Origin: Pocillopora verrucosa
Lineage: Eukaryota > Cnidaria > Anthozoa > Scleractinia > Pocilloporidae
DNA: 64,000 nucleotides
NCBI RefSeq assembly: GCF_036669915.1
Contig: NC_089312.1
Location: 11,527,209-11,591,208, forward strand
Reading direction: 5' to 3'
Shown in pieces: positions 1,143 to 63,030 of the stretch (its first letter is position 1; each line of letters starts with the position of its first letter). The position numbers and the translations under genes are program-made. The notes beneath the pieces are model-generated. The model made no database searches. It saw only the letters and a program-made list of their open reading frames with translations, and was not told the origin of the DNA.

Positions 1143-1424
1143 TAAGAAGAAAAAGTTTTGAATGAAGAACAGACAAAGGAACTCGAGTGTGACATTTCAT
1201 GTAAAAAAGAAGCGGTATTCAGCAACCTACAGCTACGACATCTGATCACATACATGTCATACAACTTGTGCCAGCTAACTGCGGATGGAAAATTAAGCAC
1301 GAAATTTAGCATTACGGAACTGAAAAGCATTTGTGACTTTTTGGACATTGAAAAGGAACATTTCAAGCGACGTAAAACTCCTTGTAATGAGGCTTGGATA
1401 ATTTTCCTGAAGAATTGCTGATGC
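1143..1424 (+). other. Unrecognised short ORF with protein-like composition
   Basis: An open frame follows the TAA at 1143-1145 and ends with the TGA near 1422. It encodes about 91 residues with a plausible helical composition (segments ELKSICDFLDIEKEHFKRRK and NEAWIIFLKNC). The first clear ATG is well inside, so if it is real it is more likely a terminal exon or a decayed fragment than a complete gene. I do not recognise the family. The helix-rich C-terminal stretch could be a small helical domain, but that is a guess. It directly borders the satellite, so chance or pseudogene origin is also likely. Confidence 0.25.
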
Positions 1425-5139: not shown

Positions 5140-5145
5140 CTTCTG
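5140..5145 (-). promoter_or_regulatory. Predicted splice acceptor in receptor 5' UTR
   Basis: On the minus strand the sequence reads TTGGTTTTTCTTGCAG, with the exon beginning at 5142, just ahead of the ATG at 5139. The long pyrimidine tract supports a non-coding upstream exon. I could not place that exon. Confidence 0.6.
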
Positions 5146-5179
5146 CAAGAAAAACCAACGCAATGTGTTTTGTTTCAAT

Positions 5180-7880
5180 AGCTCTCGCTATCTATGAAGA
5201 AGCACAATTGAATTTGAAATAAATAGGCAATAACTCTGATAAATGTCACAAGTCACTGGAAGTAACTTGCCTGAACGTTGCATTTATAGTTCAGCCTATA
5301 AAATTCTTCAGAATTACAGACTGTACAGGTTCCACAGAGTTGGGAAGAAATTTAGGAAGATTTTACTGTACAAAGATAGCTCTGTGCTATTCCACGAGGT
5401 TACTCTGATTCATTTATATTCATTCAAACCATGGCATTGTCTGCACGATATTGAAAGCTATCTTACACCTCTTTCAGATAAATTTAAATCTCACCATTTA
5501 ACATGTTTCTGTATATTGGATAAAATAATTCTTCATGACCTCCTTAAAAGTTTTTATAAACACGATATTTTCTAAAAATTACTTTAACACGTCTCGGATC
5601 TATAAAAGGCTAAAAGTGAAATTTACTTTCACCAAAAAACTCAATATTACTAAGGGCCCAAATCTCACAGTCTTTCATGGTTTGATTATTTCTTCAAAGC
5701 CTTCATCATTGTCAAGATGTATTAAGAATGAAAACCTGAAAAGTTTGCACGTCATATTTCGCAATGTTTCCATATCTGCCATTAGCTCTTATTGAAATGT
5801 CACAGTTTGTTTTCCCCTATCAAGAAAAAGCTTTCAGGATTTACTCAACCACAAGCTGGATGTCGGCGACGCCTTTTTTGTGCAATTTCCACTTTGATGT
5901 AAATGTCAAGATAAAAAACCTAGTCGTGAAACAAGAGCAATCTCTTCATGAAATGTTCTGTCAAAATAAAATCTGAAATTATTCAGGACTTGGAATTTTC
6001 ACCGATCAACCAGCCTTTTAATAACATTTTCTTTCTAGATCTCAAATTGCTTCATAAAACCTTACACAGAGTTGAGTCAGCCAAAAGAAGAGGCAACACT
6101 GAGTAAATTTCGAGAAAAACAAGAGAAATGATATCGAGGTTTATACTCTATGATTCAATGACTCGCAACCCATCTGAAGTACTTGTATACAAGAGAATTC
6201 CCAAGATCTCCTTATTTTAAGTGACAATTTCCCTTGGTCTAAAAGCGTCTTTGCATCTGTCATTTAAGGCTCCATAAGTCTATAGTACTATTCGATTAAT
6301 TTTTTTTTTTTTGGGGGGGGGGGGAGGGAGGACAACTGAAATGACTCCAGAGAGTATTTTTTTATCCGGCGAATGAAATCGTGTACGCAGGCAAATTTCA
6401 ACAAGAACAGAAAACATCCTCCTTACCTTCAGTCTGTAGCTTCTAAGACTTTTCTATTTTCGAATGCAACTAATTCGTAACAATTGTTCAGTGGTCAACA
6501 TTTCCTTTAATTTTTCTCTAGATTATCACTTCCGTCAATTAAAAATTTTCCATTAACCTCAAAACACTAGAAAAACCTCAAAGCCATCTTGTCTCAATAA
6601 ACAGCTGCGACTTTGTGAAACCAAACTTATTGAAATGAATAATTAGTTCCATCGTTTTTTACTATATACACAGCTACAAACGTCTTTCTTCGACATCTGA
6701 GTTTTATAGTAGGTGTCATCCCATGATCTAAGAACACGATATGAAAACTGAAAAACGAATCCAAACTTTGATAATAACTTGCAATGCGTGTCTTTTAGTA
6801 TTATTAACATGCATACAAAAGTCTTCATCTATAATGGATCCGTTGGGACTCATTTCACCTTTTCGTTTTTGTCTTCTCATCAGATATATAATCGAAAATT
6901 TCCGTGTGACCTTTTCCCAAGAGGTGTGTGTTTATATGTTTTCGAAGATATGTTTTTTCAAATCGTTTTTCACACCATATTTAAAAAACATCGAAAAATG
7001 ATTCCAAAAAAATAATAACTTCAGTTTTCCAGACTCCACCATTTCGAGAGTTTAAATCCATACACGTTCGCGTGTTAGATGTCAGATGACCGAATTCACA
7101 CTGCTGAAATAAGCTTTACGTACCCATACATTACTTATTTGGGTAGACACACAGCCTTATGAAAAGTATTCTTTTCATTTTGGCTAAAAAACAGATTTTG
7201 TAAGGCGGGTATCAACCCGCGAAGGTGGGAAAGAAGGAATACATTGAGGTAAAAGTTATAATCTATATGTAGTAACTTAATTCTCCGTCAAACGTTCGTT
7301 AAGAATATCGTATTCCCAACTGCAGAAGCTTCCGAGCTTAAGGTTAATGAGGGGCATCGACCTTGGATCGCGAACCTTCATATTAAAATATAGAGTTTTT
7401 ATTTTTTTCCCATTTATTTATGTTCTTATTTATCTAATAATTTGCATGTAGGTTTATTAAAATTCAATAAAAATTTGTGTACTTTCTTCATTTCATGGTT
7501 CTTTTGTAATAAACATTTAAACTAAAAAAGGTATGATAAAAGGGAAATATAAGACAAATATTCTTTCTCTCTCGCCTGACTATTAATATTAGACAAAACC
7601 TTTTAACAAAAGTGCGTCAAAATCATGCAATGACTACAATTACAGTATGACTGAGAGATCAACTTACCCCTCGAAAATAAGGACACGAATGATATCAAAA
7701 AATGATCACCAAAATTTTTATTTTTATCTCTGTCACTTTTGTTCACGAATCTTCGATGAGTCCTGACAAATTTGATGAGTGAACAAACCAAACGCGGTGG
7801 TTATTTTGTGAGTGATACTGCTCTAAATCAGTAGTTCTTTAGCAAAAACATTTTAATTCTTTTTTCCTCTAGCTGCTGTT
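5180..7880. other. No recognisable gene; low-complexity tract near 6300
   Basis: AT-rich non-coding sequence with only short ORFs. A T-run immediately followed by a G-run at about 6300-6325 is the only notable local feature. The first receptor exon or promoter may lie in the leftmost part. Confidence 0.55.
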
Positions 7881-14443: not shown

Positions 14444-16974
14444 ATGAGTTTACTTACCTCAGTTTTACACTATTTGATTATCACAACTGTTTTCCAGACC
14501 TACACTCGTGCCAAAACGACAACAAGTCTCCATAACATCCAGATTAAAGGTAAGAATTAATGTTTACTTTTATTGATATATTGAGGAAGTTACTTCTATA
14601 TGACAATACAAATAAATCTCTCACTGCGGAGATCAGATCGGCTCAGATCGGTTTTATTCCAATTTCAAAGCAACGAACTTTTAAACACATCAGAGTTCTT
14701 TGTAAGTCATAAAGAAACACTTCAACGGTTTCGCTCGTATTGTTTCCGTCTTTCATGCAGACCATAAATAATTTGATCGATACTACATTCAGATGGACCT
14801 TAGGATGTATATTTCACAAACTAGAAGCCAAAAGACTACGAAACGAAATAGTAGTGGAATGTTAAATCCCTTATTCAAAAGTTTAACATGTTATACAAGC
14901 GGACATTTTGTTCATTGGTCGTACGGGGCTCGGAAAAAAACTACACAACTCGCAAAATATCCGCCCGTATCATATGTTAAACTATTGATTACGTGTATAT
15001 ATTATCAGTGCCGTATTTTAGAGATCCTTAATACAGATAGCTTTTTATCTGTTTTTTTATGTAATTAGATTTTTTAGTTTGTTAAATAAATTGTCTAAAC
15101 AATGTTGATATCTCTCAAAAAGATGGCTGGGATTGGAGCAAGGAAGCGGCTGGAGACATTCATAACGAGCATCAGCTTATAAGACGTCGAAGGTCTAAGG
15201 TTTCTGGAAAGATCGAAACTTGCTATAAAACCTTTTTTGCCAGCAGCCTACCTCCGTCAGGATTTCGCAAAGACCACACAAACATCAGATACATATGTCA
15301 GCAAGTTCCTGGAAAACCTGCTTACTTTTATTCAACCATGTTTGATCTCAAGTATGGAATCCCGATCTACTCAGCGTACGTCGTGAAGCAAGCACAGGCG
15401 AGCCAGTTCGGTACTGCCCATAGAACTAGAGACGAATGGCGGCAGGAACAACCAGGTGAGCAAAGTAATGGATTCTCTGAGGTAATGTTCTCTTGAGTTA
15501 ATACGTAAGTTTCCACTATTTATTCCAGTATTTTATTGGAAAAGTAAAACGACATTACGCACGGTCTTCCATCCGCCATTTCAAAGCTAACAATTTCTAT
15601 CAAATTACATGGAATCATGCGCGATACTTATAGATCCAATACTATGACTCGTGAAGTAAAAAAACCACACATGCATTCCACATCATCAGACATTTACAGA
15701 TATTTCCTTTTTTCTGTTTTTTTTTTTTTTTGCGCTGGCATGCACTGGGTTCTGAAGTCGGTTATCATGATTCAGGGTTACTCTTTCGCCTTGGATATTT
15801 TTACCTCAGTGTCATTTTAAAAAGTCATGCTTTGGTTTGTCTAGGGGTGCATGGACTCGCGCAGATACCATGATCGAAATGTAGGTGGAATGCATCAGAA
15901 GTTTCTCGCTACACAATGGGAATAATAAATTTGTCGTTGATTAATTTTTCCCTTCTCACGAGAATTAGGAGAATGACCACAATTTTGCCGTAGTGCAAAC
16001 AAAAATTTTCCACTAACAATGACAAGACCGGCAGGTCCAACAGCTTAAAAATATGTATCTCATATTTTCTCCAGAATCGTGCGAAAAAAAAACATGGAGT
16101 TATAGATTAAAACTCTCAAATCAGCTTTGCCAACGATTTACAAACCGAATGAAGACACTTTTCGTGCCGTCAAGAGTGACTTCTTACTCCGGACTAGAGA
16201 AGAACTCAGAGATGGGCTTTTCAATCATCATGCCCGTGTGGGAGCTATGTCTTTTTTTTCGATGAACAAATAATGTTTTTTGTTTGTTTATTTTCAAAAA
16301 GAACACTTTTCTGAATTCTAATGTAAAGTGCATGACCCGTAGAATAAGTTTTTCTCTGATTTTTTAACTTTCCAGCTGTGATCACTCATCAAGCCAGCGA
16401 CAAAGCGTATAAAGACCAATCCACCTATGCTAAGGGCCACCTTCTTCCCGCAGAAACATATTCCTTTACTGACGATCACCTTGCTTCAACTTTCACGTAC
16501 ACAAATGCTGTCCCTCAGAAAACGAAATTTAACAGCGGAGCATGGTTACAGTATGAAAAGGAAATAAGAAATTACGCTAGCCAGACGTGTAGCATAAAGG
16601 GCGGGGACTTGTTCCTGATCACAGGCATCTCGGAAGCTCACATCGAGAAGGAAGCTCTGAGCGCAACCCAGAAGGATCTTGAATTCATGAAACCGTCCGG
16701 CGACAACATTGCTATCCCGAGATCCATGTGGACAGCCGGATGTTGCATCGTTCCCTCGACGGGTGTAGTGGGAGCCTTTGCTGTGATAGGAAATAACCTT
16801 TTCAGTAAAACAGCACCCAACATGTTTCAAGTGACAGTTCCACAGCTTAAAGGCTTTCTTCTTACTGGTGTCCAAGGCTTTGGTGGATCGGCAATCGCCT
16901 TGTTTCCAGGAAATCCTGGATGCTCTAACCCCGGAAATAATGTCAATTTTCGGAAACGGCCATTGCCTCCTTAA
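14444..16974 (+). CDS. Secreted ENDOD1-like DNA/RNA non-specific endonuclease family protein
   Basis: Three exons join in phase: 14444-14549, 15123-15455 and 16376-16974 (345 residues, all junctions phase 1). Exon 1 encodes a hydrophobic signal peptide. Exon 2 holds the N-terminal part of the NUC fold (Cys near CYKTFF, then IRYICQQ and AYFYSTMFD, IPIYSAYVV). Exon 3 has the active-site region YAKGHLLP, TNAVPQ and FNSGAWLQYE, followed by LFLITG, IPRSMWTAGCC and VVGAFAVIGNN. The His of the usual DRGH motif is kept (H168), as are the downstream Asn190 and the NxGxW block, but Asp-Arg is replaced by Ala165-Lys166. Family members cut nucleic acids or, in ENDOD1, act near membranes; catalysis here is uncertain. 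AATAAA signals follow at 16972-16990. A broken paralogue lies 1 kb upstream. Confidence 0.9.
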
Positions 16975-22630: not shown

Positions 22631-25600
22631 TTATTTGCCATCATTTTGATCAGTGCTCAATGATCCTCTTAACAAACAAAGGAATTCAAACTGTAAAAGA
22701 AAAGTGAGAGCGACCTAACCAAAGTAAAAAAATTGGCCACCCATAACGGGCTGAAGCGAGGTTAACCCTCCCCCCTCCCCCTTCAACTCGAATTGGGCCT
22801 GAGTCCCCCACTATTTTAAAGAAAGTACTAAATGTACCTTTGGATGTTATTTCGGATGAGACTGAATTTTTGATTAATCTATTTGAGACCAACAATTTGC
22901 CACCGGCCCAATCAAGCATTGTCCGTTCGTTACATTTCGTTGTTTTCCTGGACAGTTTGTGTCGATTGATGAAATAGCTGCTTTACCGAACCCTAAGCGA
23001 CCCTTGGTGTAACCCTCTGCAATGTCACGGCAATGCTTGAATCATTTTGTTAACATTATTCGATCCTACAGATCTCATTGCTTGAGAAAACAAGACATAT
23101 TTGACTTATCGAGCTAACTGCAGCAAACTGACTACACCGCAATGTTGTAGTGTAGTGAATTTGAAAATGAGCTTACGTAATCAGAAAGCTTAGGATAATT
23201 CAATGGTTACCTGTCCTGTAGTTACTTCGGTGTCCTCCCACTTCAGTTTGCGAAGCATGGGCAAGGGAAACCCTCTTTCCCCAATTACTAGGGAAAAACA
23301 GTGCATGAGACGATTGACGAGTGGGTAATAAGTCCCCATCAGCTTACTGGCAAATTTTGATTATCTTACGACAAACGTTTTACTTTTGCCAGCTTAACAT
23401 AACTACATTTACTATACGTTTAAGTTCAAGAGTTTTTTTGTAGCATTGCCAAGTTCCATAAATTCGCTATCTTATAAGTTAAATAATCACCCCCGTTCGA
23501 TAAAAGATAAATTCGTGCTTTAGCTAAGATAATTACTTAAAAATTTTAGCGAAGGAGCTAAGTTATGCCATTATGAGATTAGAAACGAAGACTATTTCTT
23601 TCAACTAAAGCTTTTAAACGGGTGCCTAGCACCATAGGCGAACCGTAAACCAAATGGAGACGAGGCTGGTTGATGTTAGCAAAGGTTTACACTCGACGTT
23701 ACCCAACTAAGTTTAACAACAGACGTAGCCGGTATAATGCATACCATTAAGCTTTTTCACAACTTTTCCAGACTCTACACCGTTCAGAAACCATTGGAGC
23801 AATCCAACGTTTGCCTGTTAAAAAAAAATGTGAACTGAATTATCACCCATCATTTTTTGGCGCGCGATTAACTAAGCGCATCAAATTACCGAGCTAGCCC
23901 CAACTGTGGAAAATCGACATCACCCGCGCTGTAAATGATCATAGCCAAAATGACCAAATTTATAAACTCATACCTCAATATCACCAATAGCAGAGCGGAC
24001 AACATGTAATTTGGTTCTAGTTAAAGAGAAAACAATTAAAAAAAAAAATGAGAAGAAAATACATTAAGTGTTACGAAATTTGTGTTCACTTTTTTTTGGA
24101 CGACAAAAAGTGTATGAAATATAGCCGATTGAAGTATCTTACCTGAATGAATTGATGTGAAACGTCAAGTTGCCTTGTTTTACACCCACAGATCCATGAA
24201 CATTAACTTTCTATGATACAGAAGTAAAGATTAATAAAATTTAGTATCCAACAAAAGAACCAGTACTTCCGAGTGAAGGCATCAGTACCGTCATTAGCAA
24301 AGCGTCGTGATGGCTGTTAAACTTTCATAATGCAAGCTAATCTATGTGTCACAAACAACAAAGAAAGGTCGTATCTGTTTCCAAGCTAAAAAAATAGACC
24401 AGCAACGTGAGTGCAAAGGGTGGGGAAACCACTTTCGATAGTGTTTTTTACGTTGTTCAAGTTATGAATTAAAACTAGAGCCTTCATTTAGACTAAATGA
24501 TTATATTGATCACATTACTTACCACACCTAGTGTTAGGGCATATATATTTGTCCCATTTTTAGAAATGACGTACACTTCAATATTACCGGCCACCGTCAC
24601 ATTGACGTTGTTAGGACTTGACACGAAAACAGGAGCCTTGCTTGTGTAGGCCTTAAGAAACACCGGTCGATCGGGGTAAAGTTTATACAGCTTCAAAAAA
24701 AATCAAACAGAAAAAAAACCGTAATTAGCAGCAGTGTAAGTGAGAAGTAGAGTACAATGAGTACAATGGGGTCAACTGACTAGCGACAATAAGCGAAAAA
24801 TTTAACTAACTACTATTAATACTAAACGACAACTGACAAGGTCCGACATTATCGATATTTGTGTTCAGAAAGGACAGCATTATTGCTCAGGAAATAGACA
24901 CTTTAAATTAAATATTCAATTAATTAAAGCATTTCCTTACTTTATGGCTGGTTAGGAGCGTGGGCTCATTTCTAGAAGCGCCTAGTGTTCGAGCCCCCGA
25001 ATAACTTAACGAATATGAATAATTTATTTGCATTTTTTATCGTTAGCTGAGATTTTACCGACAACCGATAAAGATCAGAAATCTTAACAAACTATCGACA
25101 CAGTAATGAAATTCTAACCGACAACCGACAACCGACAACCGACAACCGACAACCGACAACCGACAACCGACAACCGACAACCGACAACCGACAACCGACA
25201 ACCGACAACCGACACGAGGACCCTTTAAAATCAGATGATATCATACATGTATCATTACACACCTGGTATAGGAAGTTCTTGAAAAACTTTGTGTTCAACT
25301 GATACCTGGCAGAAGGAGGTAACTTCGCATCGAGACGATTGAGGAGAAACAGAGGTTAAGAATAAATATATTGATAAAAATATCTTTAGGTCATTGTTTG
25401 CTGCTCATGTCATCTATCACTTAACTATTTTTCTATATCACTTAAATCATGGTAATAAATTTTTACCGTAAAAGTACACAACTTAAAAAAAAATCGACAA
25501 ACAATGGCCGTTTATTTGTAAGCAAGGTTCTTAACTTACATCCCTGGGTCTAATAGTGGTACGTAGTTTTCCTTCATGGTGAAAAACAAGGCTCGCCGTG

Positions 25601-47041: not shown

Positions 47042-49813
47042 ATGAATGAAAAGTTGTTGGTCCTGGTCCTTTCATTAACCTTGGTTCCTAACGCCTTTCA
47101 CTCAGGTAAGATAATCCAAGAGTACTAAAAATATTCAAATATTTAAACTGGCCATAGCAAGTGAACTTTAGATACTTCAGTACAAATGATTATTCCAATC
47201 TTAAGCAGATAGCCAATTGATTGTGCATAACGTCATGTTTGTGTTACTTGTGTAGGCCTGAGTCACAAACACAAGACCAAACACCATGCGTTCAGGAAGG
47301 AAAGGAACTCAACTGATTTCGTCAAGCGAACGTCAGCTCACCTTCGAGACTCGAAAAGAATTGTTGAAATGGAGAAGAAAGATACATCTCGAAAGAGAAG
47401 ATTATTTCCTCCTGCAAAAAAAGATGAAATAGCAAAGAATGAGATTTTAGTGAGGGAACTGGCTTTGTCATCTTTCGCTGGAGACGTTAAAAACTCTATG
47501 AAGAGAGACAAGAAACACAAAATTACGAAGAAAATTTATCCAAAAACAAAAACAAGACTTGCTTTACGAGCTACATCAACAGCGAAAAGCACTCAGAAAA
47601 GAACTTCCATAATTTTGCCTTCAGCTACAGGAGATAGATCTCAGCCTGAACACGCACTTCCTATTTCTCGCACTCTCTTCACTGCATTGGGGCTGTTGTT
47701 GAACGAAAAGAATCATTTTGTTAAAGACTCCAATGCCCTGTCCCTGGCTAAAGTGCTTCTTGACAATGACAAAGCAGTAAGTCAAGAGCACAAAACTGTT
47801 GGTTCTGATCCTCAAAACTCTAAAGCTGAGTATCCTCAAGATTTTGGGAGCAAACTATTACGTCTTTTGAACGTTTCATCGTTTCGGAACAGTCCATCTG
47901 GTGAGCGGAAGTCTACTATACATACCGAGCTTATCAATCCTACAGAGTTGGGAATCTCAATATTGAGACTGTTGTTTGGGCGCAAGGCACACCTTGTAAC
48001 CAAACCCACATACAAACCTTTGCTCCGGTATAATCCAACCGATTCAAGTTCACGAATAAAACTTTTACCTCAAACAAGACAGTTAGATAAAGGGAATGCA
48101 ATGATAACGAATAGGAAACATCACAAAAAGTCATTTTCTTTTGCCCTAGCAAAAGCTGTTAGCGATCTTATCAAGTCTATGGCTAAGGAAGAACTAAAAA
48201 ATTACTTGCGAAAAATGAATGACGATCCCAAATTTACAAAGGGTGCATCGTTGTCAAGGGTACCTGACAGTTTTTGGCCCTCGAAGAAAGTGGTGGACGT
48301 TCAAGGGAATCGGAAATCGTGGGTTCTTTTAAAAATTCCAAAATCAGGAGAATCAATGGTGCCTAATAAAGATTTCTCCGATGAACCTCTTCAAGAAAAG
48401 GAAACCGATGTGGACAATGAGACCGAATCTGAAAAAAAGCCGACAGGTATTGTGGATACTTTAGGGAAACTTAACGATGCTCAGCCTTTATCTCAGGAAA
48501 ACCTCAAAAAAGATGTAGGTGAACCCTCAAAAGACACAGCGAATGAAAACACAAAAGTGCGACCGACCACCAAGGCTGGTTACAGCGTGAGGATTCTACC
48601 CTCATTAAAAGGGACAGCTGAGAAACAAACTGATAGTTACCACACAAATAGGAAGCCTCAGTCTGCCACACAAACTACAGCTGCATTCGCCGAAGCTGTC
48701 CAAAAGTTATTGCAAGCAGTACAATCCAGTATCAAAAGTCTCCAGGGCAAACACGTGATAAATTATCCTTCGGATCTAAGCCCAACAGAAGAGAATCAAC
48801 ATATAAACATTCCGTCCACAAGAACTGGAAGTGTAAGAGCCATACAAAAAGACCCAGTTTCTGTACATTACGTTGAACCCACGATAAAGACTCAATTTAT
48901 GCAAGATATTCCTGTCCATGGGAAAGCGAACTCCGTAGAACTGTCCGCTCTAATCAGAGAAGCTGGGCAAGAAGATCGGAAGCCTCAAAAGGATCGAGCA
49001 AATGCGCTCTTTGACCCATTGAAAGACCTAGAAATATCACCATCTGAACCAATTACAAAATCAAATTCCCCGACGAAAGCGCTGGCTCCATCTGACAATG
49101 TCCTTTTTGAGTCTGCCACAGAGATCGGAACTCCTAGAGACAAGCAAGAATCCTCCACAGTACAGCACATCAAGGAAGGTAACGTTCAACCGTTTTTGCC
49201 CTTTTAATTTATGTTGTTGCCATCCTTTGTCTTTTTGATATTGATGCTGTCGAGGTCTGGTTTAACCGCACTATTCTCTTGTTGACTAGATCTTGAAACT
49301 TTTGCTGAGAAGGGCCTTCAAGCTCATAATCATTATCGTCAAGAACACCACTCTTCTAATCTTCGTTGGTCAGACGTACTTGCTACGCAAGCAGAAAAAA
49401 TGGCATATGATATGGCCATGAGGGGAATCGTCGAACGCTCAGAATTAGCAATGTCGATGGGTTATGGAGAAAATGTGGCAAAAATCACAGGCGTCCCATT
49501 CAACGACGCTGGAGAAGTGGCAACTAATCTTTGGTATAGCGAATCACGTAATTATAGTTATTCGTATCCACGAGTAATTCCACAGACTGACGCATTCACT
49601 CAACTGGTCTGGAGAGGAACGAAAGAGATAGGCATGGGATGCGCCAAGGATGTCGCTACTAATGATTTGTATGTGGTGGCTTTGTATAAACCTCCAGGGA
49701 ATGATCGGCGACGTTTACGAGATAATGTACTCAATAAAGGAACTATGACAGAGGACGTTTACGCCACAATATTTAAGAGGGCAAAAATGCTACCAAATAC
49801 AACCCTTAATTGA
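47042..49813 (+). CDS. Secreted CAP-domain protein 1 with basic disordered region (no TSP1)
   Basis: Three exons, 47042-47105, 47256-49178 and 49290-49813, all joined in phase 1 (836 residues). Exon 1 is a signal peptide (LLVLVLSLTLVPNAFHS). Exon 2 is a single 1.9-kb Lys/Arg/Ser/Thr-rich low-complexity segment with a furin-like RKRR at about residues 67-70 and spaced Leu-rich helices (FTALGLLLNEK, LLRLLNVSS, ISILRLLFGRK, AVQKLLQAVQ). Exon 3 is the CAP domain (SCP/PR-1 fold, about 663-836): HNHYRQEH, GYGENVAK, LWYSESRNYSYSYP, DAFTQLVW and VVALYKPPGN. It is closest in length and low Cys content to the GAPR-1 type. The usual His before FTQ is Ala here. CAP proteins are secreted and bind lipids or receptors; the role here is unknown. 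First of three tandem paralogues. AATAAA lies at about 49840. Confidence 0.9.
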
Positions 49814-51345
49814 TATACCTTGTTTATTAAAAGCTTGAAAATAAATACTTTTATTTGTTTTCATGTTTGTTTATGGATGAAAGACTTGGTAACAGTGAGA
49901 CGAATTTTTTCGAGAATGATACAGAAAAAGGTAAACGCAACGGTAATTAAGTTGTAACTGAAATGTAAAATAAACTTTTCCTCAATAACCAAAAAATGCA
50001 GAATATTCTCATTGAAACACCTAATACAGCTTATTTCCACGATATAATTGGAGCGCGTTCTTTACATGCTTAGGTAAACTATTTTTATGATTGAGTTGAA
50101 AAATAACGACTATAGAACCACCCTCTTTTCTTTTTAAATTCGTCACGTACAACGTTACATTCTGTCTTTCATTATAATATTATTCCAGGAGAGGCTTAGA
50201 GACACACTCTAAGGTAAACCTGTAGAGGAATACTCCGGAAATTCGGATGCTTTCTAAAACAATCAGACGAGCCTTTCATTTCTGCGAGGTATTTTGGGAT
50301 GTCTTTTTGTACATGCCGCGTTTTATTTACCCTCAGCACCGATTATTTGTTGTAGCTCCGGTTCTACACTTGTCGAGGAATCGAGGGTTTGACGAAGATA
50401 TTTTACGAGCCTTAAAAAAACCGTAAGACCGAATGTTACTCCTCGGACCGTAAATTTTTTTGACACGTAGTTATGTAATGAATAGAGCACCTGCCCAAAA
50501 GACTATCTCTATTACTAATTTAACCTGTTTTCTCGGTGAAAATCAGATCTTTTGCAATGGCCAAAAATAATGTATCTGCCGCTTAAAACAAACCTGGTAT
50601 GTAACTGGTAAGTGAGTTATTGTGCCATTTTCATTATTTTATTATTAGGTTGTGTGCTCCGGTGTAAGATATGAATCTCACTGAATTTCCAAAAGCTTTA
50701 CAGCCGAGCATATATGAACCGGAAGAAGGAAAATTGACAAATCCTCGCTCGTCCAAGTCGAGATGCGAGAAATATTTTAGTGTTTACTACCAAACGACTA
50801 ATGGATCAAGAAAGCATTTCAGCCATCGTAACCAATAACCACTTTACATGTCTATCAGACACAGAGATCGACACATGATATCTTATTTTCATTTACCAAG
50901 AATCACGGAAGATAGGGACCTCTGAATCAAACATTTAAACAAGAGGATGACATTTACATTTATGCGACTTCTCGACTAGGAAGAAATTACCAGAGCATGT
51001 CATATCTGGACCCAAATACCGATGATTCTATATTCAGTTGGAGGGAGCCAAAATCGAGATCTTTTATTACTCAAAAGGGCCCGAAAAGTTTCCCATTCAT
51101 GTCCCCGGTAAACTAAGTTGCCAACTCAGATGAATGTCGTAACACGCGCGTTTGACCAAGTCCATTTCTATAATTCGTTGCACTCTTTTATTCTTGAATC
51201 ATACTTACCTAGTTCAATCATTTTCACATTTCTATAAGGTATTTAATCTCGCTGATTTATTTGTTTGTTAACGGCATTTTATATGGTTTTAAAAGGAAAT
51301 TACAGCCATGCTCTTGGTGGGCAGAATTGTTTAACAGCTGAGAAG
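49814..51345. other. Intergenic between CAP genes 1 and 2
   Basis: Contains the polyadenylation signal of gene 1 and presumably the promoter of gene 2. No further coding sequence is recognised. Confidence 0.5.
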
Positions 51346-54300
51346 ATGACCAAGGCTTCCATTCCCACGCTGTTAATACTAGCGTTCCTGTTACTTATAG
51401 TAAAAGGTATGTTTTGATGCATATTTTCCTGTCTTCTTTTCAAATCCAACTCAAGGACTGTTTGCAAACTTCTTTCCTCAGGTTCTCGGGAGAAGATAAC
51501 CCGGAAAAAGCATGAAAGAAAAATACCTGCGCTGCCATTCGAGAAAATTACACGATCAGCTCTTATCGGATTAAAACCAGAGGATGTTTTTAAAGTGACT
51601 AATGCAGGTTGGCAAGAAGTTTCTCTGTTGTCTAATAAAATCATCGTCATAGACCTTTATAACGGTATTTTGTTATGTGCTAGGGTCAGATACCGAGGGC
51701 ACAAGAAAAAATAATGTAAATTCTCTACAACAACTTCCAGCGATTAAAGGTAATTGTTTATTTATACGTTTTGTTATAAATTAAGTTTCATAACAGCGTT
51801 CCTTCAGATCACATTGAACCAAGTGCACATTAAAGCGAATATACCTTGTCTCCCAACAGTGACTAAGCAATTTACTTTATCATAAAACCCATTTGCTGGG
51901 ATAAGAAGATAATTGTCTGTTTAACTCTGGGGTGATGTGAGTATTTAATATCATACCTACCCACCAGTAGTAGAGTCATACTTGTCCCTAATTTGACCTT
52001 TCATCTTTTCCTTTTTCCTTGGACTCAGAGGAACAAAGTTTGACAAACAGTGCCCTATTGTATTCTGGACAGCTGTCATCACTTGACCAACGATTGGTGA
52101 ACCAATTTGACAAAGGTAATGTTTCATTAGTATTCAATGTAATTTAATCTAATAGAATAATCAAGATTATAACATCACTCAGCTATTATTTTGAAATAAA
52201 ACAACTAAAACTTTTCCTAGGACATATAAAATTATCCAGGTTATACTTCCTTACGTTAGCTTTAACTCTGTGTAGTGTGAGCTCTCAACGATGCTACGGG
52301 GAAAGCCGTGACCGCTTAATACAGGTCAACCGCCTTTTAAAGGTTCCACAGATCGTGCATACAATAAAAAAAACACAAAACAAGTCGTTTTATGCTATAA
52401 TGTACCACTTAATGCACAAAAGCTCCCTTAAAAATAATTTTTACATTGATTTCGGGCGATAAAAATGAATTCAACTTTACAAAGAAAATCATTCTCAGTT
52501 TTATTTGAGTGATTCTACTTTATGTGACCGAAAATGCAAGTAAAAGTAAATACAAACAGGCCGTTAGGACACAGTAAACGGTGTCCACGACCGCTTCATA
52601 GAGGTGACTAGGGCTCTGGTAGTATATTAATCCGAAGTTTCTTTTGTTCATCTTAACACTAATAAGGTTACACTTTTAAAATATTCAGGAAGGGTTACCC
52701 ATCAAATTAACCTTGTTTTTTTCTTTCTCTATTTCTGTATTGGGTATCTAGTATTTTTTTGACAAAATAGTTTTCCCTCTCAAAAGAACTTACAGGAAAT
52801 CATGAGGATTATTTGCATGGCACAATGTCAAAGACTGAAGACGGTTATGTGATGGATCCTTCTCATAACAAGTCACCAAACGGTAACTTATTAGAAATTT
52901 AGAGTGGTGTGTAATTTTTAGACTTTTGAGGTCCAAGGAATTCGGAAAGAAGCGTAGGAAAACTAAGAGAATACAATTGCCCCGCTTATGACAAAGCTAT
53001 AGAGCAAAGATTAAACTCTTGGTGTTCACCATTGACTTCCAAATATTGTTAGAAAGAAATGGTTTCTTTTTTCCTGTGCATGTGCTTAAAGAGCCTATTC
53101 AAAATATTGAAAACCATTTGGGTAACGCTAATTTCTTCTTCTTCAGATTTTAGTAAGAGTAGTAGGAACTTCGTTGAGAAGGTAACAAGAGATGAAATGG
53201 GGAGAACTGAAGATATGAGTAAGCACCCACGTCACTTCTGCACGTGCATGCGACGACCGAAAAAATGCACGTTTCATGTATAAGGTTCAGGTCTGTTGAC
53301 CACCTGTTCTGGGGTCTAAAATGGTATCTGAATTTGCGACAAAAGCAATGGTTTCCTTCTTTCCTCTTACAGCTGCAGTTTCTGTTTGAGAAGTATTAAG
53401 AAATAGGTTGAATTGTATCCAGCCTCTTTTCCCTCTTTGTTGCAACATTTGTAAGTGGATAAGGCGTCAAATTGGGTAAGAAGTTTTCAAACCGACAGGA
53501 ACGAAACTGAACTGTCTGGAGGCCTTGCATAATCCGTACTCTCGTTTGCAGGTACTGTTCGTAATGGAGGGCTGGATAATGATTTCTATCGCCAAATAAG
53601 CCAGATAGACAACGATCAGCCACAAGCTTCTGATGCTGGTAAAGTCAGTGACATGTACAAAGATAACCCTTTACCTGAGTACAGCTACAAGGAGTCAGAA
53701 TTCGACAAAATGCCTGATTACAATTCTAAGTTTGGAAACAATCCGTTCGAAATGCCAAAGAATTATTATCAAGAACTTGATACCCAAGATAAAGAACTCT
53801 TTGAGGGCCTTAATACAAATCAAGAACACCACCAAAACTCCCCATCTGATAACTCGGATCTTTTTTCTGCGATTGGTAAAAAGGTCATTCTTGACTTGCT
53901 GAACCATCGAAACGACTCAGATCACCAGAGCGAAGACCATCTTAAGCAAGACTTTCTCAAGAAAGTGATAGGAGAAAAAATTGAACAAAATGATGCGGCA
54001 ATTGGCTCTTTGCTTGCAACTAAACAAGCAACAACTCTGTCACCTTTTCACAGTCAAGTGAAAACACTGATGACGGCTAACCCTAACGTGATCAGTTATC
54101 ATTTGCCTACATTACCATCGCAAGGAAACGTTTTAACGTCAGGGAAGATATCTTCGAAAAGTATAATGATCAATGAGCAACAACCACCAAGCACGACAAA
54201 TGAAGACAACCTACATATTCAAGGACAAGTTTCTCGAGGTGGTCCTCCTACGCCATCTCGAATGATGAAAGATCAGTCCGCAGATATCCCAAATAGCAAA

Positions 54301-56457
54301 ACGCTATTTAGAAACGCTTTGCAATCTAAAGAAACAGACTCACCAAATGATAGTTATGTGACACTTAAAATATCTGGTGCTGGAAAACCTGTTAGTTTTA
54401 AAGCTGGAACTAGTAATGACGGATCGCTAGTTCTTAAAATACCTGGCAATGTCACATTAACGGAATCGGATCCAAAAAAAACCATTAAAAGTGGAACGTT
54501 CCCCAAAATGAAAGAATATAACAACTATAACCCACAAATAGCAACAGATGCTGACGAAATGAACCGTTATCTCTGGGAAAGCCAAACAGATCCAGGAAGA
54601 GAATTCTCTAAGAAAGGAAATATGATTAAAGGTTTTGATGACGATTTGACAACAAATATGCTTAGCTGGCAGATTCTGGGGAAAACGAATTCCAAATTAA
54701 ATAACGGCAATGATTGGGAACATAATGAGGGTCTTTTTCACGAGGCAGATCTACCCTCTGTGAGCCCAACCAGAGGTCGCAACGTTGGCGAGAATCAAAG
54801 AAGTCCGACTGCAGTGCACGGTTTTAAACAAATATCTCCAACCAAATACAATGAACTAGACAGAATATCATTTGCCGGGGTAGGACAATCTCCCCCACCA
54901 GATATATTTCCTCTAAGCTCAAGACTGCGGGAAGGAGAAGAAAAGCACAAGTTTTTGTCCTTGAAAAGCTTTTTGAGGCCATCTAGGTTTTTCGAGGACC
55001 ATCCTGAAAACAGGGCAAGACTCAGCTTTAGACCGGACCACGACTTAACGAGATCGTCCACCAATAGGAAGTTGGAAAATGGTTAGAATCAAAAATATTA
55101 ACTACCATCATGTAAATGTGCCGGCAAAAAATATCCAAGCTATTTTCATCAGAAAGTTGTAAGGTTTTGAAACGACTTAAGCTTCCAACTATGCCGGTAA
55201 TCGGAAATTTTTTTAATCAATCAGCATGTATGGAAAACTACTACTTCATCGGGGGCTACTTCTGTAATTTCTGCCAAAGCAAAATTAAAAGGTCAATCAA
55301 ACCTAAAAAAATATACAAGGCGTCTTTGACAACTTAAGGGAAAAGGTGAAGACTGTTTTTGGTTTAAATTACACGGGAAAATTCCTTTACTTTTATTAAA
55401 GTCCAGGAACGTAGCCATAGAAAACTGATATGGTCAAACTTTTGAACCATAGTGAAATACTTTAACTAGTACAGGTTTTGGTCACAGGCCACGATAGATA
55501 GGCTGTTTTCAATCGAAGGATGCTTAATTCTATACTTTCTGCACAGGTGTGAAGGATTCTTGGTCGCCATGTTCAGTGACCTGTGGTCAAGGTATTCAAG
55601 CTAGAGCTCAGTTCTGCCAGGGAAGACAGTGTAAGGGATACAGAACAGAAAGCAGGGCTTGTTTCATGCACCCATGTCCCGGTAAGACTCACTTCCAGGG
55701 AAAAAGAGCAGGAAACCGGTAATGTCAAACTGCTCATAAGCATTTGGATTATACATCCTTTGCTAACATAATTATACATATAAATTAGATTATAATGATA
55801 ATGAGGTATACAAAATAAGACCGGATAAATTTAAAACTGATTCATTTTTCATCTCTGAAAAAACACCGTAATTTATCTCTCACTTTTTTGCTGTCAATCT
55901 TAGGCTTTATTTTCCTCGGTCGATTTAGAATGATATTACGCCATTTCGGAAGAAAGATGCTGCATGAGTGATATTTAATCTTAAATGCCATTTCTTGAAT
56001 TTTGTCAGAGCAACTAGGGAGAGCTGGTCTTCGTTTACATAACAAGTTTAGAACATGGCACGGAAGTCCTCCTCTGAAGTGGTCCAAGCGTTTGGCCTCA
56101 AAGGCTCAGGAAATCGCTAAACATTTAGCAGATAATTCAATCCATTTAACGGACTTGAAAAAGGAGCATATCGGTATTAACGTGGCCCGCCTGTGGCACA
56201 GTTACGACATCGCTGCCGAGAAAGCTACCGCTGACTGGTATAGCGAAGTCAAGAGCTACAACTTCGACGATCCAATGATCGACAAGTCTACCAGGCACTT
56301 TACTCAACTTATATGGAGAGATTCGAAGTGGCTCGGAATTGGGGAAGCAAAAAGCTTGGATGGAAAGCACACTGTTGTGGTTGCACTTTATGATCCACCT
56401 GGAAACTTAAGACATAAGGAGAAAAGCAACATCCATATACCTGAATCACAGAGTTAG
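51346..56457 (+). CDS. Secreted TSP1-CAP protein 2 with mixed-charge disordered region
   Basis: Nine exons: 51346-51406, 51482-51607, 51684-51749, 52029-52115, 52796-52882, 53147-53218, 53552-55081, 55547-55681 and 56009-56457 (870 residues). Every intron is phase 1. Exon 1 is a signal peptide (IPTLLILAFLLLIV). Five short exons and then one 1.5-kb exon encode a polar Asn/Ser/Asp/Lys-rich region with a helical patch (AIGKKVILDLL). Exon 8 is one thrombospondin type 1 repeat with six Cys and the core WSPCSVTCGQG. Exon 9 is the CAP domain: LHNKFRTWHG, LKWSKRLASKAQEIA, DWYSEVKSYNF, RHFTQLIW, VVALYDPPGN. The GEN motif reads GIN, losing a Glu usually in the CAP tetrad. TSP1 repeats bind glycosaminoglycans and matrix, so an extracellular-matrix location is likely. 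The short-exon boundaries are supported by phase only, so they are less sure. Confidence 0.88.
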
Positions 56458-59176
56458 GAAAGCAGGGAAGCGCTGCTAATCATATTTGTCTGAGCTAGTC
56501 ATATTTAAATAGATATCCGCCAGTGGCTTTTTGCAGCTTACACGTTTGGATTAGGTGCTGCACATTGAAAATGTCTTTTACATGGACCCTAAAGGCTCTT
56601 TATAAGAGGAAATGTACCACAGTTTCCATAAAGGAACTGAAAACGAGATCATATTCAGTTTGATTGAAGCGCGTGTGTTACTTTTTACATACCACTTGGA
56701 ACTGACAGTTGAATTGAAAGTTGAAGATCCGTTGCAAAAAAATTGTTTCCTTATGTCTACAACACAAAACCAGTGTCTGAATACCTCAAACCTTAAGCGC
56801 TTTTATGGCCACGTGCTCGTCCAAGTTTTCTTTAAACTCTGTTTAAGAAGAATCTTGCGACAAGAACACAAGATTGTTCGTTCTCTTAAAGTTGTTCTCC
56901 TCGCAGTTTACCAGGTACTATATAAAACCGTCGTCAAAGGCAAACCATTAGTCAAAGTATTTTTCTTTTGGGTGGTCGTCGAATTTCTCGATTTCGTCAA
57001 ATCGGGAGGGTTGTTTTAATTGGTCCCAAATGTTATCACTATTGCATTTTATAAGCATCAAAGCCAAGCGGCCTTGCGCTGACTCTACATGTCAGTCACA
57101 TCTTAAAAAATATTAGCGTTGCCCCTTTTCAAGAAGACGAAGCCTATCTCTGACCCCACTTACACGCCTCAGTGACTAGCAGACGTGAAACACGAAAAGA
57201 AGACGAGTCGAGAAGTGATGCGATGAAGAGGAAGTTAGTGGAGTGGGATTTTATTTCTTCACTTTCTTGTCCGTTTAATTTAACGTCTGCTACACAGCTC
57301 AAGGCTCGCTGAACAGTATCTCGAAACATAAGAAAAAAAAGTGTCTAGGATACATTGGTTGGCAAGAATAAGGAAAATTAAGTATCTTGAAGAAATCAAG
57401 TAATAATTAACTTTAATCAACCATTTGAAAATAAAATGTTACTTGCTGAAAGATTGACGTCTATGGTCATACCCTTGCAAGTCTAGACATATCAGTCCGG
57501 GCGAGTAACATCTCCAGTATCCTACCGGCCTTTTCAGGTATCGACACTTTTACAATACTCTTACCTACCTAATTTTTTTCAGGTATTAGGCGTGCGAAAT
57601 CACCTTAGAATTATTATTTCACATCAACCAAACACGGGATTTGAAATCGCCGCACGTCTGAAATGGCTGCATTAAAACTCTCTTGATTTACTCATATCCT
57701 ACAGGAATGTTAACAACAGCCAATGTAATTACGTGCTCATGTCATTGCTATTCCATCATAAGCAGTCCTCACCTCTTTAAAAATCATTTTCAAGCTTTAA
57801 CATGTGGTTAAGGAAGTTACCGTTATATTTTGCAAAATTTAAGCAGTTCATCGTAACCTACAAAAGATCCCAGAGATCCGTGGGACTTCTAGCAGTGTGA
57901 CAGCCATATCCATCGTAGTCATATAATTGGCCACAAAAATGTAATGCAATGCGATGATGTCTCTGCGAAAAACTAAAATAAGTTTTCATACTGAAATCTG
58001 CATGCAAGCTGAAAAGGAGGCGTTCATGGAATAATATACCCGAATCATGTGTGCTTGACCTACTTTTCTGTTATAAGGGCGAAAATCCCATGAAGCATCC
58101 TTCATTTCAGCTATTCACATTTTTTAAAGGAAACCATGCGTTAAAGTGAATCAATTGGAAACCCGTAAAGGAATTGCCACCGTCAGGTGATTAAGCAAAT
58201 TTAGATGAAATTCGTCAGGATGAGGTTCCCACGAATCGGTAAAATATATATACATACCATACAGTGTAAGTTCAAATACACATCCTCATAAAATTAAAGT
58301 GTAATTACAAATCTCCCTTTTCCACAAATTCCATCAACTATTCATCACTGGAACACTTTCAGGTATTCAAACTCTATCATCTGCGATTTAAACGTCGTTA
58401 ATATCGAAACGCCTCAACACTTGAAAATGGGTTAGAGAATTAATTGCAAGACTGACAAAGGTAAGGATGTAAATAATTTGGGAAGTATTAATTTTATGTG
58501 TTCATGATGGGCAGCTGTATTTGTTTTTATGTCATATTAGATTTGGTATTAGGGTTTGTTTACGTGTTTAGTTTAATTTTAAGTTCGAGGGGTCTCAAAC
58601 CTTGAAGCCGTCGATATTTAACTGAAGGGTGTACACTTAAAAGCGTTATTTAACTGTACTGTTAAACCGTGTTCACTGTGCGAAATGTTTTACATGAAGC
58701 AACTGAACAGAGAGACCTTTATGTCGCCTAATTCCCTACTTTTTTGGTTATCGTTCATATCAACCTTCATTTTAACTAGCTGTAAATCGACAAGAAAAAT
58801 TATTGAAATAAGTGCACAAGTTGCAGTTCCTCTGTATTACCCTAAAAGTCCTCCATCAGTATGCATATTTTCCAGACTGTTTTCTATAGTTTTTCAATGT
58901 TCCTAACAAGAAAAATTTAGGACATGAACTATGTTCGTTTGTCTCACGATTTCACGACTTCGTGACTCAAGGTGAATTTGTTTAACACTCAAGAGCTGCT
59001 TTCGTAAGCGATTATTTCTTTCATGCTCATGACCTTAATGTTTGATTATAGATGCCTGCCACTTCTAGCGGTTAAAGGGTCTAGTTTGCAGTGCAATCGT
59101 AAACACAATTTATTTGTGAGACCTCCATAACTCTCAGTTCCCAGTTTCATGATGCATGTTAAATTCTCTCAACAGC
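56458..59176. other. Intergenic between CAP genes 2 and 3
   Basis: Contains the gene 2 3' UTR and gene 3 promoter. A 135-codon ORF at 56612-57019 has no recognisable domain and starts inside the probable 3' UTR. An ORF at 58685-58906 is similarly unsupported. Confidence 0.5.
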
Positions 59177-62100
59177 ATGGCTTACAAATCAATGTTAATG
59201 ATTTTAGTATTTGCTGCTATCGGGCAGGACTACATACTGGGTAAGTAACATTTCGAAGTCGCCTTTTTGATATACCTTTATGACGAAAATTGGAAACATC
59301 AACTACTGTTCCTTTCACACGACAAAATTACCTCGGCAGGTATAAAATTCGGTAGAAACAAGGTGGAAGTAATTCACAGGGGAAAACAATTACAAGGTAG
59401 GGACAAACCACCAATCAAACACATTTGATTTCAAGTGAATGAAGGGGGAAAGTTTCTAAAGAAACTGTGGTGCTGAGTCGGTTTGACGAAGGGTTAAAGT
59501 TCAAAACGTCAGATTTCAAACTCTTTACGGTGGCCAATTTACGCTATCAACTTAGTTGATAATGCAAAATTATCTTGTTACATTTGATTTTAACGTGGCA
59601 TTTTGAAAAGATAAAAATATTTCTAACGCCGTTTACTTTTAAGCGGTTATAAATCTTGTGTATGTTGCATGTAGATCTGGTGATGCTCGACAGTCGCGTA
59701 GCTCCGCATGACCTTGACAACTTACACGCATTTGTGCGACCAAAACTGCTTGAGGACAGTAAAGATGAGGGAAGTAAGTAATGGTTATCATAGGCTTAGA
59801 CCTACAAGTATGTTAGAGTGGACGAACATGTGGGGCACATTACACACAGAGAGAAATCAAGTACAGTAAAGCAAAACCCTGTTCACTGGTGCTCATGTCA
59901 ATGAGATCAAGTTAAACTGTGAGCACTTAGTCCTTTTTCCAGTAGTATGCCCATACCAAAGATCTCCTCTGATCTCTGTCCTCTTCGTTAGTGATGCTTC
60001 AGGAAAACGGAATTGAAGACTTCCGTCCGTTAGACGTTACTATTGAAACAGATGAAGGGCCACACAAAGAAAAAAAGCACCACAAAGAGAAGGACCAGAT
60101 GTTAGTTTCCCATACTGGAGATAACGATGAAGGATACAACTTACAAGATATGCCCGAATATAAGATGGAAACCAAAGCAGACTTCGAAGAGAACCAAGAA
60201 GCAATTGATTGGCTAATGAAAGATCCTAACGAGTACAACGCAAAATCTTTTGAAGATAGCGATGCGTTAGAAGACACAAACAATTTCGGTTTAGATATGG
60301 ACTTTCCCAATATGGAAGATCAACATCGGACAACTTTTCGTCAAAGAAAAAAGGGGAAAGAAAGACACAATGACATGTCTGGGAAGGGTACAATTAAGCT
60401 TCCTGGTAACCCGCAGTTACTTCAGGATAGTGACCAAATTGGAGATGATACAGACTTGTTATCGAGTGAAATGGACGCTGAAACTGGCATACATCGTGCT
60501 AAGTTAACAAAATCGACAGATAGTGACAAAAACTTCCAAAATTCCGAATATTCTGAAAATGATAACTTGGATCACAGTTACAAAACTTGGAATGGTAACA
60601 ATAACGATGTGAATGACGGTACCACTGATAGATGGTTTGACGAATACGACAGCGATAAAGACGCATCTTCCAGGAAGAGTCTCCAAGAACGAATAAAAAA
60701 CCAAGACGCAAAACTATTCCAAGAAATAGACAACTATAATAAAGGAGATAACTATGAAACTTCTGATTATATGGATAATTTTGATAACTATGGCGATGAA
60801 TTAAAAAATACTATTGACCCTGAAAACAAAGACATGGCAGATGATAAGTCTGACGATGAGGAAGATACTGCCCGGGCAAACGACGGAAACTCTGATCGTT
60901 ACCAGGACGATGATGCTCCTGAAAACAAGTATGCATGGAACAGTGAGGAAAGCTCACATGTAGGTGATAAAACCGACACCGAAAAGCTAGAGGACACAGA
61001 TAATGGGGAGAACTCTGACGCTAGTGGCATTTTATCTGGCGATACAGACGATAGCCTACATGGTAAATTGGAGGACGAAAGTAGGGAAAACGCTAAAGCT
61101 ACAAACAATAATCAACAAGTTAAAAATAGAAACAGTCACAACGTAGATGGCGATAGTAAAGTACAAGAAGCAGAGGGAGAAGTGACAAATAACCAAAGCA
61201 ATAATACTGTGATACCAACAACTCAGAGTATAGGTGATGGAGAGGAGAATCATTTGGGCAGAAGTAAAGATGTGAAGATTATAAACAAAGGCCAACACAC
61301 ACAAGCTGTTAATTATAAAGAAAACGAACAGCCTGCCAACAACAAATTTTTACACCAAACAACAACTAATTCCAGCAGCGGCAAAGATCACCATTCGAAA
61401 ACCGTGAATCCTGAAGAAGATAAAATTGGCACCACTGCTAAGAGTCTTTGGATACCTGCCAAAAGTGAAATCAAAGGTTTTCAACATTCAAATTCAAGTG
61501 AGCAAGTGGTGTCACTTTCAGACCCTGAAGTCATCGGTGAAATTAAAAAAGGTTCAAAAACTGAGCAGTCTCATGAAGAATCTCAGAGCCAAACAAAAAA
61601 ACTTAAATCAAAACAAAGTGATGAACAATGGCTAATCCTTCAAAAAGTGAACGATCTCTTAAGAGAAGCAGAGGAAAGTCCTCATGCACAAATCAGTGCT
61701 GCTCTGACGAAACCAAAACTTGACCATAGAAAAGAATTTCCCCATCATAACAGCCGAACGCGATCCCAAAGAAAAAGTAACAAGCCAACGTCAACTGGAT
61801 TCCGAAGAAACTGGGAAAATTATCGTCCATCACCGCCTAGTGGCTACTCAACACCAGACCTAAAAAAAATGGAACAAGTAATCTCCTTTTTGCGGGGAAC
61901 AACATCCTCTTTATCGCTTCCTACAAGATCCTCAAGGCCATCTGATGTTTCACTGAAAAGTCTTTACTATTATCCACTTCATCCAACGCCTCAAGATCAG
62001 AATGATGGAACCTCTGCTGATACCAAAGGTAAGTTCCAAAAGTTAACTTCAAATAAACTGAAATACAGATCGTGCAGGTAACAAGTAATGAGGTGAAACT

Positions 62101-63030
62101 GCTTCTTTTGAAACTCAAAATTCTAAAACAAAAAATGTATTGAAACTGCATTTTTTTAACCTAACATTCTGTGAAATGGGGTGTTTAGCAGTATTACTGA
62201 ATAATACGTACATGTTTGAATTGTGATTCCACTACAGCAACCCTCTTTCCCAGCGTCTATACATTTTATTAAGGAGTGCAGTGGGCAATCAATGAATATC
62301 GGTTTTCTTTAGATGCAACGTTCGGTGAATGGAATGACTGGTCCTCGTGTTCAGTAACTTGTGGTAAAGGAGTAACCGTTAGAGCCCGAGTGTGCCTCGT
62401 GAATGCATGTCCTCAAAAAGATTTGTTTCAATCGAAAAGTTGTCATGAGGATATCTGTGCAGGTACGTGGTGATAACAATTACTGTACGGCTACTTCTAG
62501 TGAATTTAGCATCATAATTGTCATTAATAATTTTATTATCATTAATCTTATGATTCCTAGATGAGGTGGAAAGGGAAGCCTTGAAGGAACACAATAGACT
62601 CAGAGCCAAACATTTCTCTCCTCCATTATCCTGGTCAGCTTCCCTGGCAAGGAAGGCTCGAAAAATTGCTCAGTCTCTCGCAGGCAAGGATTTCCTTACT
62701 CTGGATGATCTTCAGGAGCGACAAGGGGAGAGTATTGCTCAAATAGTCTACACCGGGGAAAGTACAATAACAAAGACGATAGATAAATGGTACAAGGAAA
62801 TGGGGTCGTACAGTTTTTCGTATCCAAAGATAAATAGCAAAACACGACATTTTGCGCAAATAACATGGAAAGGAACGAAAAAGATGGGACTCGCTATTAC
62901 TAGAAGCGGCAGTGGAGAATACGCTTTTGTAGTTGCTCTTTATAATCCACCTGTTTCCAGTGAGAGACACTTACAGCAAAATATTCTTCCTCCTGGTCTC
63001 AGGCACGATTTGTACTCAACGTTTCGATGA
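59177..63030 (+). CDS. Secreted acidic TSP1-CAP protein 3
   Basis: Five exons, 59177-59240, 59675-59773, 59992-62028, 62313-62462 and 62561-63030 (939 residues), with all introns phase 1. Exon 1 is a signal peptide of the same 64-nt length as in CAP gene 1. The 2.0-kb exon 3 (residues about 55-733) is extremely rich in Asp, Glu, Asn, Ser and Lys, with runs such as DDKSDDEEDTA and DSDKDASS; its last 150 residues turn basic (RKSNKPTS). Exon 4 is a canonical TSP1 repeat (FGEWNDWSSCSVTCGKG, six Cys). Exon 5 is the CAP domain: EHNRLRAKHF, WSASLARKARKIAQ, GESIAQIVY, KWYKEMGSYSFSYP, RHFAQITW, VVALYNPPVS. The acid-rich middle resembles, in composition only, matrix proteins that bind calcium. No homology to a named matrix protein is claimed. 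AATAAA lies at about 63320. Confidence 0.9.
59481..59580 (+). mobile_element. Penelope-like 3' tail remnant in intron 1 of CAP gene 3
   Basis: The blocks TTGACGAAGGGTTAAAGTTC, AAAACGTCAGATTTCAAACT and CTTTACGGTGGCCAATTTAC match the tails at 19687-19790 and, inverted, 30541-30642. Only the non-coding tail remains. Confidence 0.65.

What the first reader, a model, noticed from the sequence alone, without database searches (positions are those of the whole stretch)
47042..63030. Tandem family of secreted CAP proteins with giant disordered exons, a candidate new extracellular system
Three consecutive same-strand genes share a signal-peptide exon, one very long low-complexity exon (1.5 to 2.0 kb), and a terminal CAP exon; two also have a TSP1 exon. 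Every intron is phase 1, the hallmark of exon shuffling of extracellular modules. I know CAP and TSP1 domains separately in cnidarian secreted proteins, but I do not recall this disordered-TSP1-CAP architecture as a named family.
Basis: partly seen in the sequence, partly recalled or inferred. Interest (0 to 1): 0.8.

Follow-up and report, generated by a model that had tools for sequence, protein, structure and literature searches.

The report
Secreted CAP proteins with disordered tails
This is a row of related genes for secreted proteins that end in a common CAP domain but carry long, apparently unstructured front parts of very different charge, a new arrangement of familiar animal protein modules rather than a new kind of system.

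Summary
Three same-strand genes (47042-49813, 51346-56457, 59177-63030) each splice in frame as signal-peptide exon, 1.5-2.0 kb exon, TSP1 exon (genes 2 and 3) and terminal CAP exon; phase 1 scores best at 8 of 8 junctions. CAP and TSP1 pass Pfam cut-offs. The long exons exceed chance, lack cysteine, score as disordered, differ in charge (pI 9.85, 6.00, 4.80) and show no detectable mutual similarity. "Low-complexity" is too strong.

The array continues past the window: a fourth gene has small charged exons and CAP but no giant exon. C2 relatives show no giant exon in the DNA read. The CAP is GAPR-1-like, but 0 of 6 clade members keep the His/Glu tetrad.

CAP plus TSP1 is already known from red-coral skeleton, in the reverse order (PMC7853314); this genome has that order on C7. 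I read the cluster as extracellular-matrix proteins with fast-changing charged tails. No expression or cross-species evidence was available. New variant of a known kind.

The parts
47042..47105 (+). gene 1 exon 1, signal peptide (MNEKLLVLVLSLTLVPNAFHS), ends phase 1
   Evidence: GT donor at 47106
47256..49178 (+). gene 1 exon 2, 640 aa disordered by composition, basic (pI 9.85, net +37, no Cys)
   Evidence: sole match in own genome at E<=0.01
49290..49813 (+). gene 1 exon 3, CAP domain and stop
   Evidence: (PF00188 6.6e-16)
51346..51406 (+). gene 2 exon 1, signal peptide (MTKASIPTLLILAFLLLIVK)
52796..52882 (+). gene 2 candidate small phase 1-1 exon (weak)
   Evidence: in frame, chosen by eye, not listed at the threshold
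53147..53218 (+). gene 2 candidate small phase 1-1 exon (weak)
   Evidence: in frame, chosen by eye, not listed at the threshold
53552..55081 (+). gene 2 long exon, 509 aa disordered by composition, near neutral (pI 6.0, no Cys)
55547..55681 (+). gene 2 TSP1 exon
   Evidence: (PF00090 3.7e-11)
56009..56457 (+). gene 2 CAP exon and stop
   Evidence: (7.7e-20); model fold
59177..59240 (+). gene 3 exon 1, signal peptide (MAYKSMLMILVFAAIGQDYIL)
59340..59396 (+). gene 3 candidate small phase 1-1 exon (weak)
   Evidence: in frame, chosen by eye, not listed at the threshold
59675..59773 (+). gene 3 candidate small phase 1-1 exon (weak)
   Evidence: in frame, chosen by eye, not listed at the threshold
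59992..62028 (+). gene 3 long exon, 678 aa disordered by composition, acidic (pI 4.80, 20% D+E, net -52, no Cys); a start at 60052 scores somewhat better
   Evidence: sole match in own genome at E<=0.01
62313..62462 (+). gene 3 TSP1 exon (a start at 62274 also fits)
   Evidence: (PF00090 1.5e-10)
62561..63030 (+). gene 3 CAP exon and stop
   Evidence: (1.4e-19)

Best explanation
A tandem array of at least four paralogous secreted CAP proteins (three in the window, one just beyond). Shown by sequence: signal-peptide exon, Cys-free charged part that looks disordered (one giant exon in genes 1-3, several small ones in gene 4), a TSP1 exon in genes 2 and 3, and a C-terminal GAPR-1-like CAP domain whose His/Glu tetrad is broken, joined at phase-1 introns. 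Inferred: they are structural proteins of an extracellular matrix, most likely the skeletal or another secreted organic matrix. TSP1 and CAP would dock the protein to other matrix proteins and sugars. The disordered tail, basic, near neutral or acidic by paralog, would set which polyions or mineral ions it binds. The CAP has probably lost its metal site and would work as a binding or assembly module. The 0.45 below is for this function; the gene structure alone I would put near 0.9.
Against: No transcript, proteomic or localisation data for these genes. Only gene 3 is clearly acidic; gene 1 is strongly basic. The order differs from CR_3-4, and a CAP-then-TSP1 gene sits elsewhere in this genome (C7), so the matrix role is borrowed by analogy; that C7 CAP keeps the tetrad, so a broken tetrad is not needed for a CAP+TSP1 protein. 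Term searches of the main text of five coral or octocoral papers on skeletal proteins found no CAP-superfamily protein (only CAP-Gly), nor did one of a stony-coral cell atlas; their supplements were not seen. Disorder rests on charge-hydropathy alone; in the same test the gene 2 and 3 CAP exons score about half disordered, so it is a weak test.
Confidence: 0.45

Rival explanations
1. Nematocyst, venom or mucus component: the genes belong to the large cnidarian CAP set used in stinging cells or surface secretions, and the tail is a packaging or pro-part.
For: PMC3627010 (section 13 read): 60 CAP gene models in Nematostella; NEP-16, -17 and -20 were released from nematocysts and NEP-16 is expressed in nematocytes; the paper adds that many Hydra nematocyst CAP proteins have further domains. 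73 CAP exon matches in this genome.
Against: [quoted passage not shown] toxicity was untested there. TSP1 and a 500-700 aa disordered tail suit a matrix protein better (inference).
Confidence: 0.25
2. The disordered part is a propeptide or separable chain: a furin-like cut releases a charged peptide and a small CAP protein.
For: Gene 1 has one RKRR site at residue 45 of the long exon.
Against: No R-x-K/R-R site in the long exons of genes 2 and 3, so it is not a family trait; the gene 1 site lies near the N-terminus, leaving most of the tail on the CAP side.
Confidence: 0.12
3. The modules belong to separate genes, or the long exons are untranslated or pseudogenic.
For: No transcript was available; gene 2 has a 2.1 kb first intron in the minimal model.
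Against: Open frames two to three times longer than any in 40 random sequences, one frame and one phase throughout, and one phase-1 signal-peptide site per gene with no other on that strand.
Confidence: 0.07

Closest known systems
CR_3-4 CAP-like protein of Corallium rubrum skeleton (PMC7853314)
   Same: Extracellular CAP domain of GAPR-1 type combined with TSP1; anthozoan
   Different: There CAP comes first and two TSP1 follow; no long disordered part is described in the text I saw (figures are not held). The same order is found in this genome at C7:2.475-2.481 Mb, not in the window.
GAPR-1 / GLIPR2 (PDB 1smb)
   Same: Best sequence and fold match of the gene 2 CAP domain
   Different: GAPR-1 is almost only a CAP domain (PMC6900432) and has H54, E65, E86, H103; here a signal peptide, long tail, sometimes TSP1, and a broken tetrad
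Cnidarian nematocyst CAP proteins NEP-16, -17, -20
   Same: Secreted anthozoan CAP proteins
   Different: Short, single CAP domain by PMC3627010
Coral acidic skeletal proteins (SAARP/CARP)
   Same: Gene 3 tail is secreted, acidic and disordered by composition
   Different: 20% D+E only, joined to TSP1 and CAP; gene 1 is basic, gene 2 near neutral

Membership tests
CAP superfamily (PF00188) | CAP domain over curated cut-off | tested here: met
   59.7, 72.3, 71.5 bits against 21.1
CAP superfamily (PF00188) | alpha-beta-alpha CAP fold | tested here: met
CAP superfamily (PF00188) | His/Glu tetrad (conserved, but not strictly required: 9 of 20 rows here keep it) | tested here: not met
   Broken in genes 1-4
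GAPR-1 subfamily | almost only a CAP domain; no signal peptide (the latter recalled) | tested here: not met
   Signal-peptide exon and long tail
CRISP family | C-terminal cysteine-rich domain after CAP | tested here: not met
   CAP exon is terminal; 1, 0, 0, 0 Cys in the CAP exons of genes 1-4
TSP1 proteins (PF00090) | TSP1 domain over cut-off | tested here: met
   Genes 2 and 3: 43.5 and 41.6 bits against 21.6. A two-sequence query over the window and loci L009-L027 found TSP1 only in genes 2 and 3, so genes 1 and 4 appear to lack it.
CR_3-4 type CAP-TSP1 skeletal protein | CAP followed by TSP1 repeats | tested here: not met
   Order is TSP1 then CAP
CR_3-4 type CAP-TSP1 skeletal protein | presence in the biomineral matrix | not testable with these tools
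   No proteome data
Acidic skeletal proteins (SAARP/CARP) | highly acidic Asp-rich tract plus conserved non-acidic region | tested here: inconclusive
   Gene 3 pI 4.80, 11% D; the conserved region was not compared

The most novel reading that the evidence does not exclude
One locus makes a charge-graded set of CAP-ended matrix scaffolds: the same signal-peptide and CAP frame carries basic, near-neutral or acidic giant disordered exons of unrelated sequence that arose in this array, so that phase-1 exon gain supplies lineage-specific polyelectrolyte tails to a conserved docking domain. A separate acidic exon of about 2600 codons in front of a CAP exon on C4 would show that CAP exons have taken on such tails twice.
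Probability: 0.25. Interest if true: 0.6.

Novelty: new variant of a known kind. Interest (0 to 1): 0.38.

Why it matters
If the proteins are in the skeleton or mesoglea, the array is a clean case of a conserved domain gaining unrelated disordered tails of opposite charge in neighbouring genes. It could help to explain why skeletal proteomes differ between coral species. It also warns annotators: CAP genes in such genomes may be named GAPR-1-like with their long 5-prime exons missed.

Tried and rejected
Shared ancestry of the three long exons: pairwise blastp without filtering gave nothing better than E 0.059. Relation of these to the C4 giant exon: best E 0.55. A clade of the four cluster genes alone: not supported; gene 1 groups with two C2 genes (99/98) and the label needs 3 changes; the wider group of six has open support (86/84). 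Automatic splice scoring: too weak to call small exons; one search did not list my four candidates of genes 2 and 3, and listed two others in gene 2 (51684-51749 and 52029-52115) that I left out; of the four small gene 4 exons it listed two, the other two are by eye. Genome-wide TSP1 next to CAP: only 150 of 803 TSP1 candidates were scored and the window's own were not among them; the pairing used 62 CAP places (61 of the 73 rows, or close to it, and one more) and 56 of the 150 TSP1 rows, typed by hand (lists counted), so the C7 pairing is a lower bound. Paper searches on Hydra nematocysts and on SCP+TSP1 listed no paper, and one on pedal-disc adhesion listed 8, none of which I opened. Pfam on window 60-2000 with stops as X: none. 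My errors: one search prints intron phases 1 and 2 swapped; searches used a wrong frame or wrong ends for gene 4; searches used wrong frames; one search stopped on a one-base error; hold wrong ends for gene 3 and for the small exons, corrected.
Full report
What is there. The window is G000:C1:11527209-11591208 of a 353.4 Mb genome in 52 contigs. No name is given; the size recalls a Pocillopora assembly, which is recollection and not a test. Three genes lie head to tail on the + strand. Gene 1: 47042-47105, 47256-49178, 49290-49813. Gene 2: 51346-51406, 53552-55081, 55547-55681, 56009-56457. Gene 3: 59177-59240, 59992-62028, 62313-62462, 62561-63030. Spliced, they give 836, 724 and 906 aa with no internal stop, and 8 of 8 introns are GT-AG and phase 1 (genes 1 and 2, gene 3). 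I had picked these boundaries by eye, and my first automatic list favoured phase 1 by its thresholds. With the three phases scored alike, phase 1 is best at 8 of 8 junctions and gives my coordinates at 7 of 8; for gene 3 the long exon may start at 60052. Genes 2 and 3 can each take two further small phase 1-1 exons without losing the frame, but one search did not list them and they remain candidates.

More than chance. The longest stop-free run in 40 order-2 Markov sequences of window length was 233 aa; the three long exons lie in runs of 658, 517 and 702 aa. A scan for ATG, hydrophobic stretch and phase-1 donor finds 3 forward-strand sites in the whole window, one at each gene, and 1 on the other strand.

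Modules. Pfam finds CAP in the three terminal exons and TSP1 in the exons before it in genes 2 and 3, all over the curated cut-offs; the long exons hit nothing at E<=1. The long exons have no cysteine, pI 9.85, 6.00 and 4.80, and 69%, 75% and 97% of 51-aa windows on the disordered side of the charge-hydropathy line, against 18%, 53%, 50% and 28% for the CAP exons of genes 1-4, so this test separates gene 3 well and the others moderately. They are not similar to one another (best E 0.059), and the exons of genes 1 and 3 match nothing else in the genome at E<=0.01; the gene 2 query did not complete. SEG-like masking covers 3%, 0% and 12%, so 'low-complexity' is too strong.

Family. A fourth gene begins 0.4 kb past the window edge, its CAP exon 3.4 kb past it (L009). 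Its model, signal peptide, four small phase 1-1 charged exons (two listed, two by eye) and CAP, gives 423 aa, no stop, 5 of 5 introns phase 1; signal exon and CAP alone would also join in frame. A two-sequence TSP1 query over the window and 19 loci (L009-L027) hit only genes 2 and 3. In a 21-row tree genes 1-4 and two C2:19.64 Mb genes group together (86/84, drawn open), with gene 1 beside the C2 pair (99/98). In the part of the C2 locus listed, one gene has a signal-peptide exon close to its CAP and no long open frame lies between; for the other no signal exon was found. A further gene 1-like CAP on C2:19.56 Mb was not read. So the giant exons look like gains in this array or losses elsewhere; the data do not decide. 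The genome has 73 CAP exon matches at E<=0.001.

A second case. On C4 an open frame of 2614 codons (22218682-22226523; the 2507 codons measured are 27% D+E, pI 4.15) holds a phase-1 donor 194 bases before a CAP exon with a phase-1 acceptor, among other CAP exons (this junction is by eye). I did not find its start or a signal peptide.

What is known. Corallium rubrum CR_3-4 is a GAPR-1-type CAP followed by two TSP1 domains; by the text it comes next after scleritin in abundance and is one of 11 matrix proteins with homologs in stony-coral skeletomes (PMC7853314; passages and section 13; figure 6 is not held, so I cannot say which part is homologous). At C7 a CAP exon is followed at 3.5 to 5.7 kb by five TSP1 exons on the same strand, which is that order; that they form one gene was not shown. 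Nematostella CAP proteins occur in nematocysts (PMC3627010, section 13). Transcripts with an 'SCP domain' appear in both the planula and the post-settlement pool of a coral settlement study (PMC3204972, passages). Two CAP-superfamily proteins lie in sponge spicule matrix (PMC12419799, passage). I saw no paper in my nine searches that describes a long disordered part + TSP1 + CAP; most hits I saw only as listings.

Reading. The gene structure is secure short of transcripts. The function is inference: secreted matrix proteins whose CAP and TSP1 modules dock and whose tails bring charge. Nematocyst, venom or mucus use is the main rival. It is a new variant of a known kind, of moderate interest.

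Noticed in passing
G000:C4:22218682-22226523 (L017, L030): Open frame of 2614 codons, very acidic, apparently joined at phase 1 to a CAP exon inside a cluster of CAP exons.
   Followed up: partly
G000:C7:2474848-2480731: CAP exon followed by five TSP1 exons on the same strand, the module order of the red-coral skeletal protein CR_3-4.
   Followed up: partly
window 4141-5187 (-): 349-aa open frame matching the rhodopsin-type GPCR family, 7tm_1 5.8e-25.
   Followed up: no
window 16360-16971 (+): Exon-like frame of a DNA/RNA non-specific endonuclease, Endonuclease_NS 1.1e-19.
   Followed up: no
window 25116-25214: About 14 perfect copies of the 7-mer AACCGAC.
   Followed up: no
window 1-420: Array of a 55-base unit at the left edge.
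   Followed up: no
L009:690-830 and window about 59480-59600: Near-perfect inverted repeat in the first intron of gene 4, and a related-looking stretch in a gene 3 intron, MITE-like by eye.
   Followed up: no
G000:C1:18269904-18271253: Eight TSP1 matches inside one open frame of 1523 codons.
   Followed up: no
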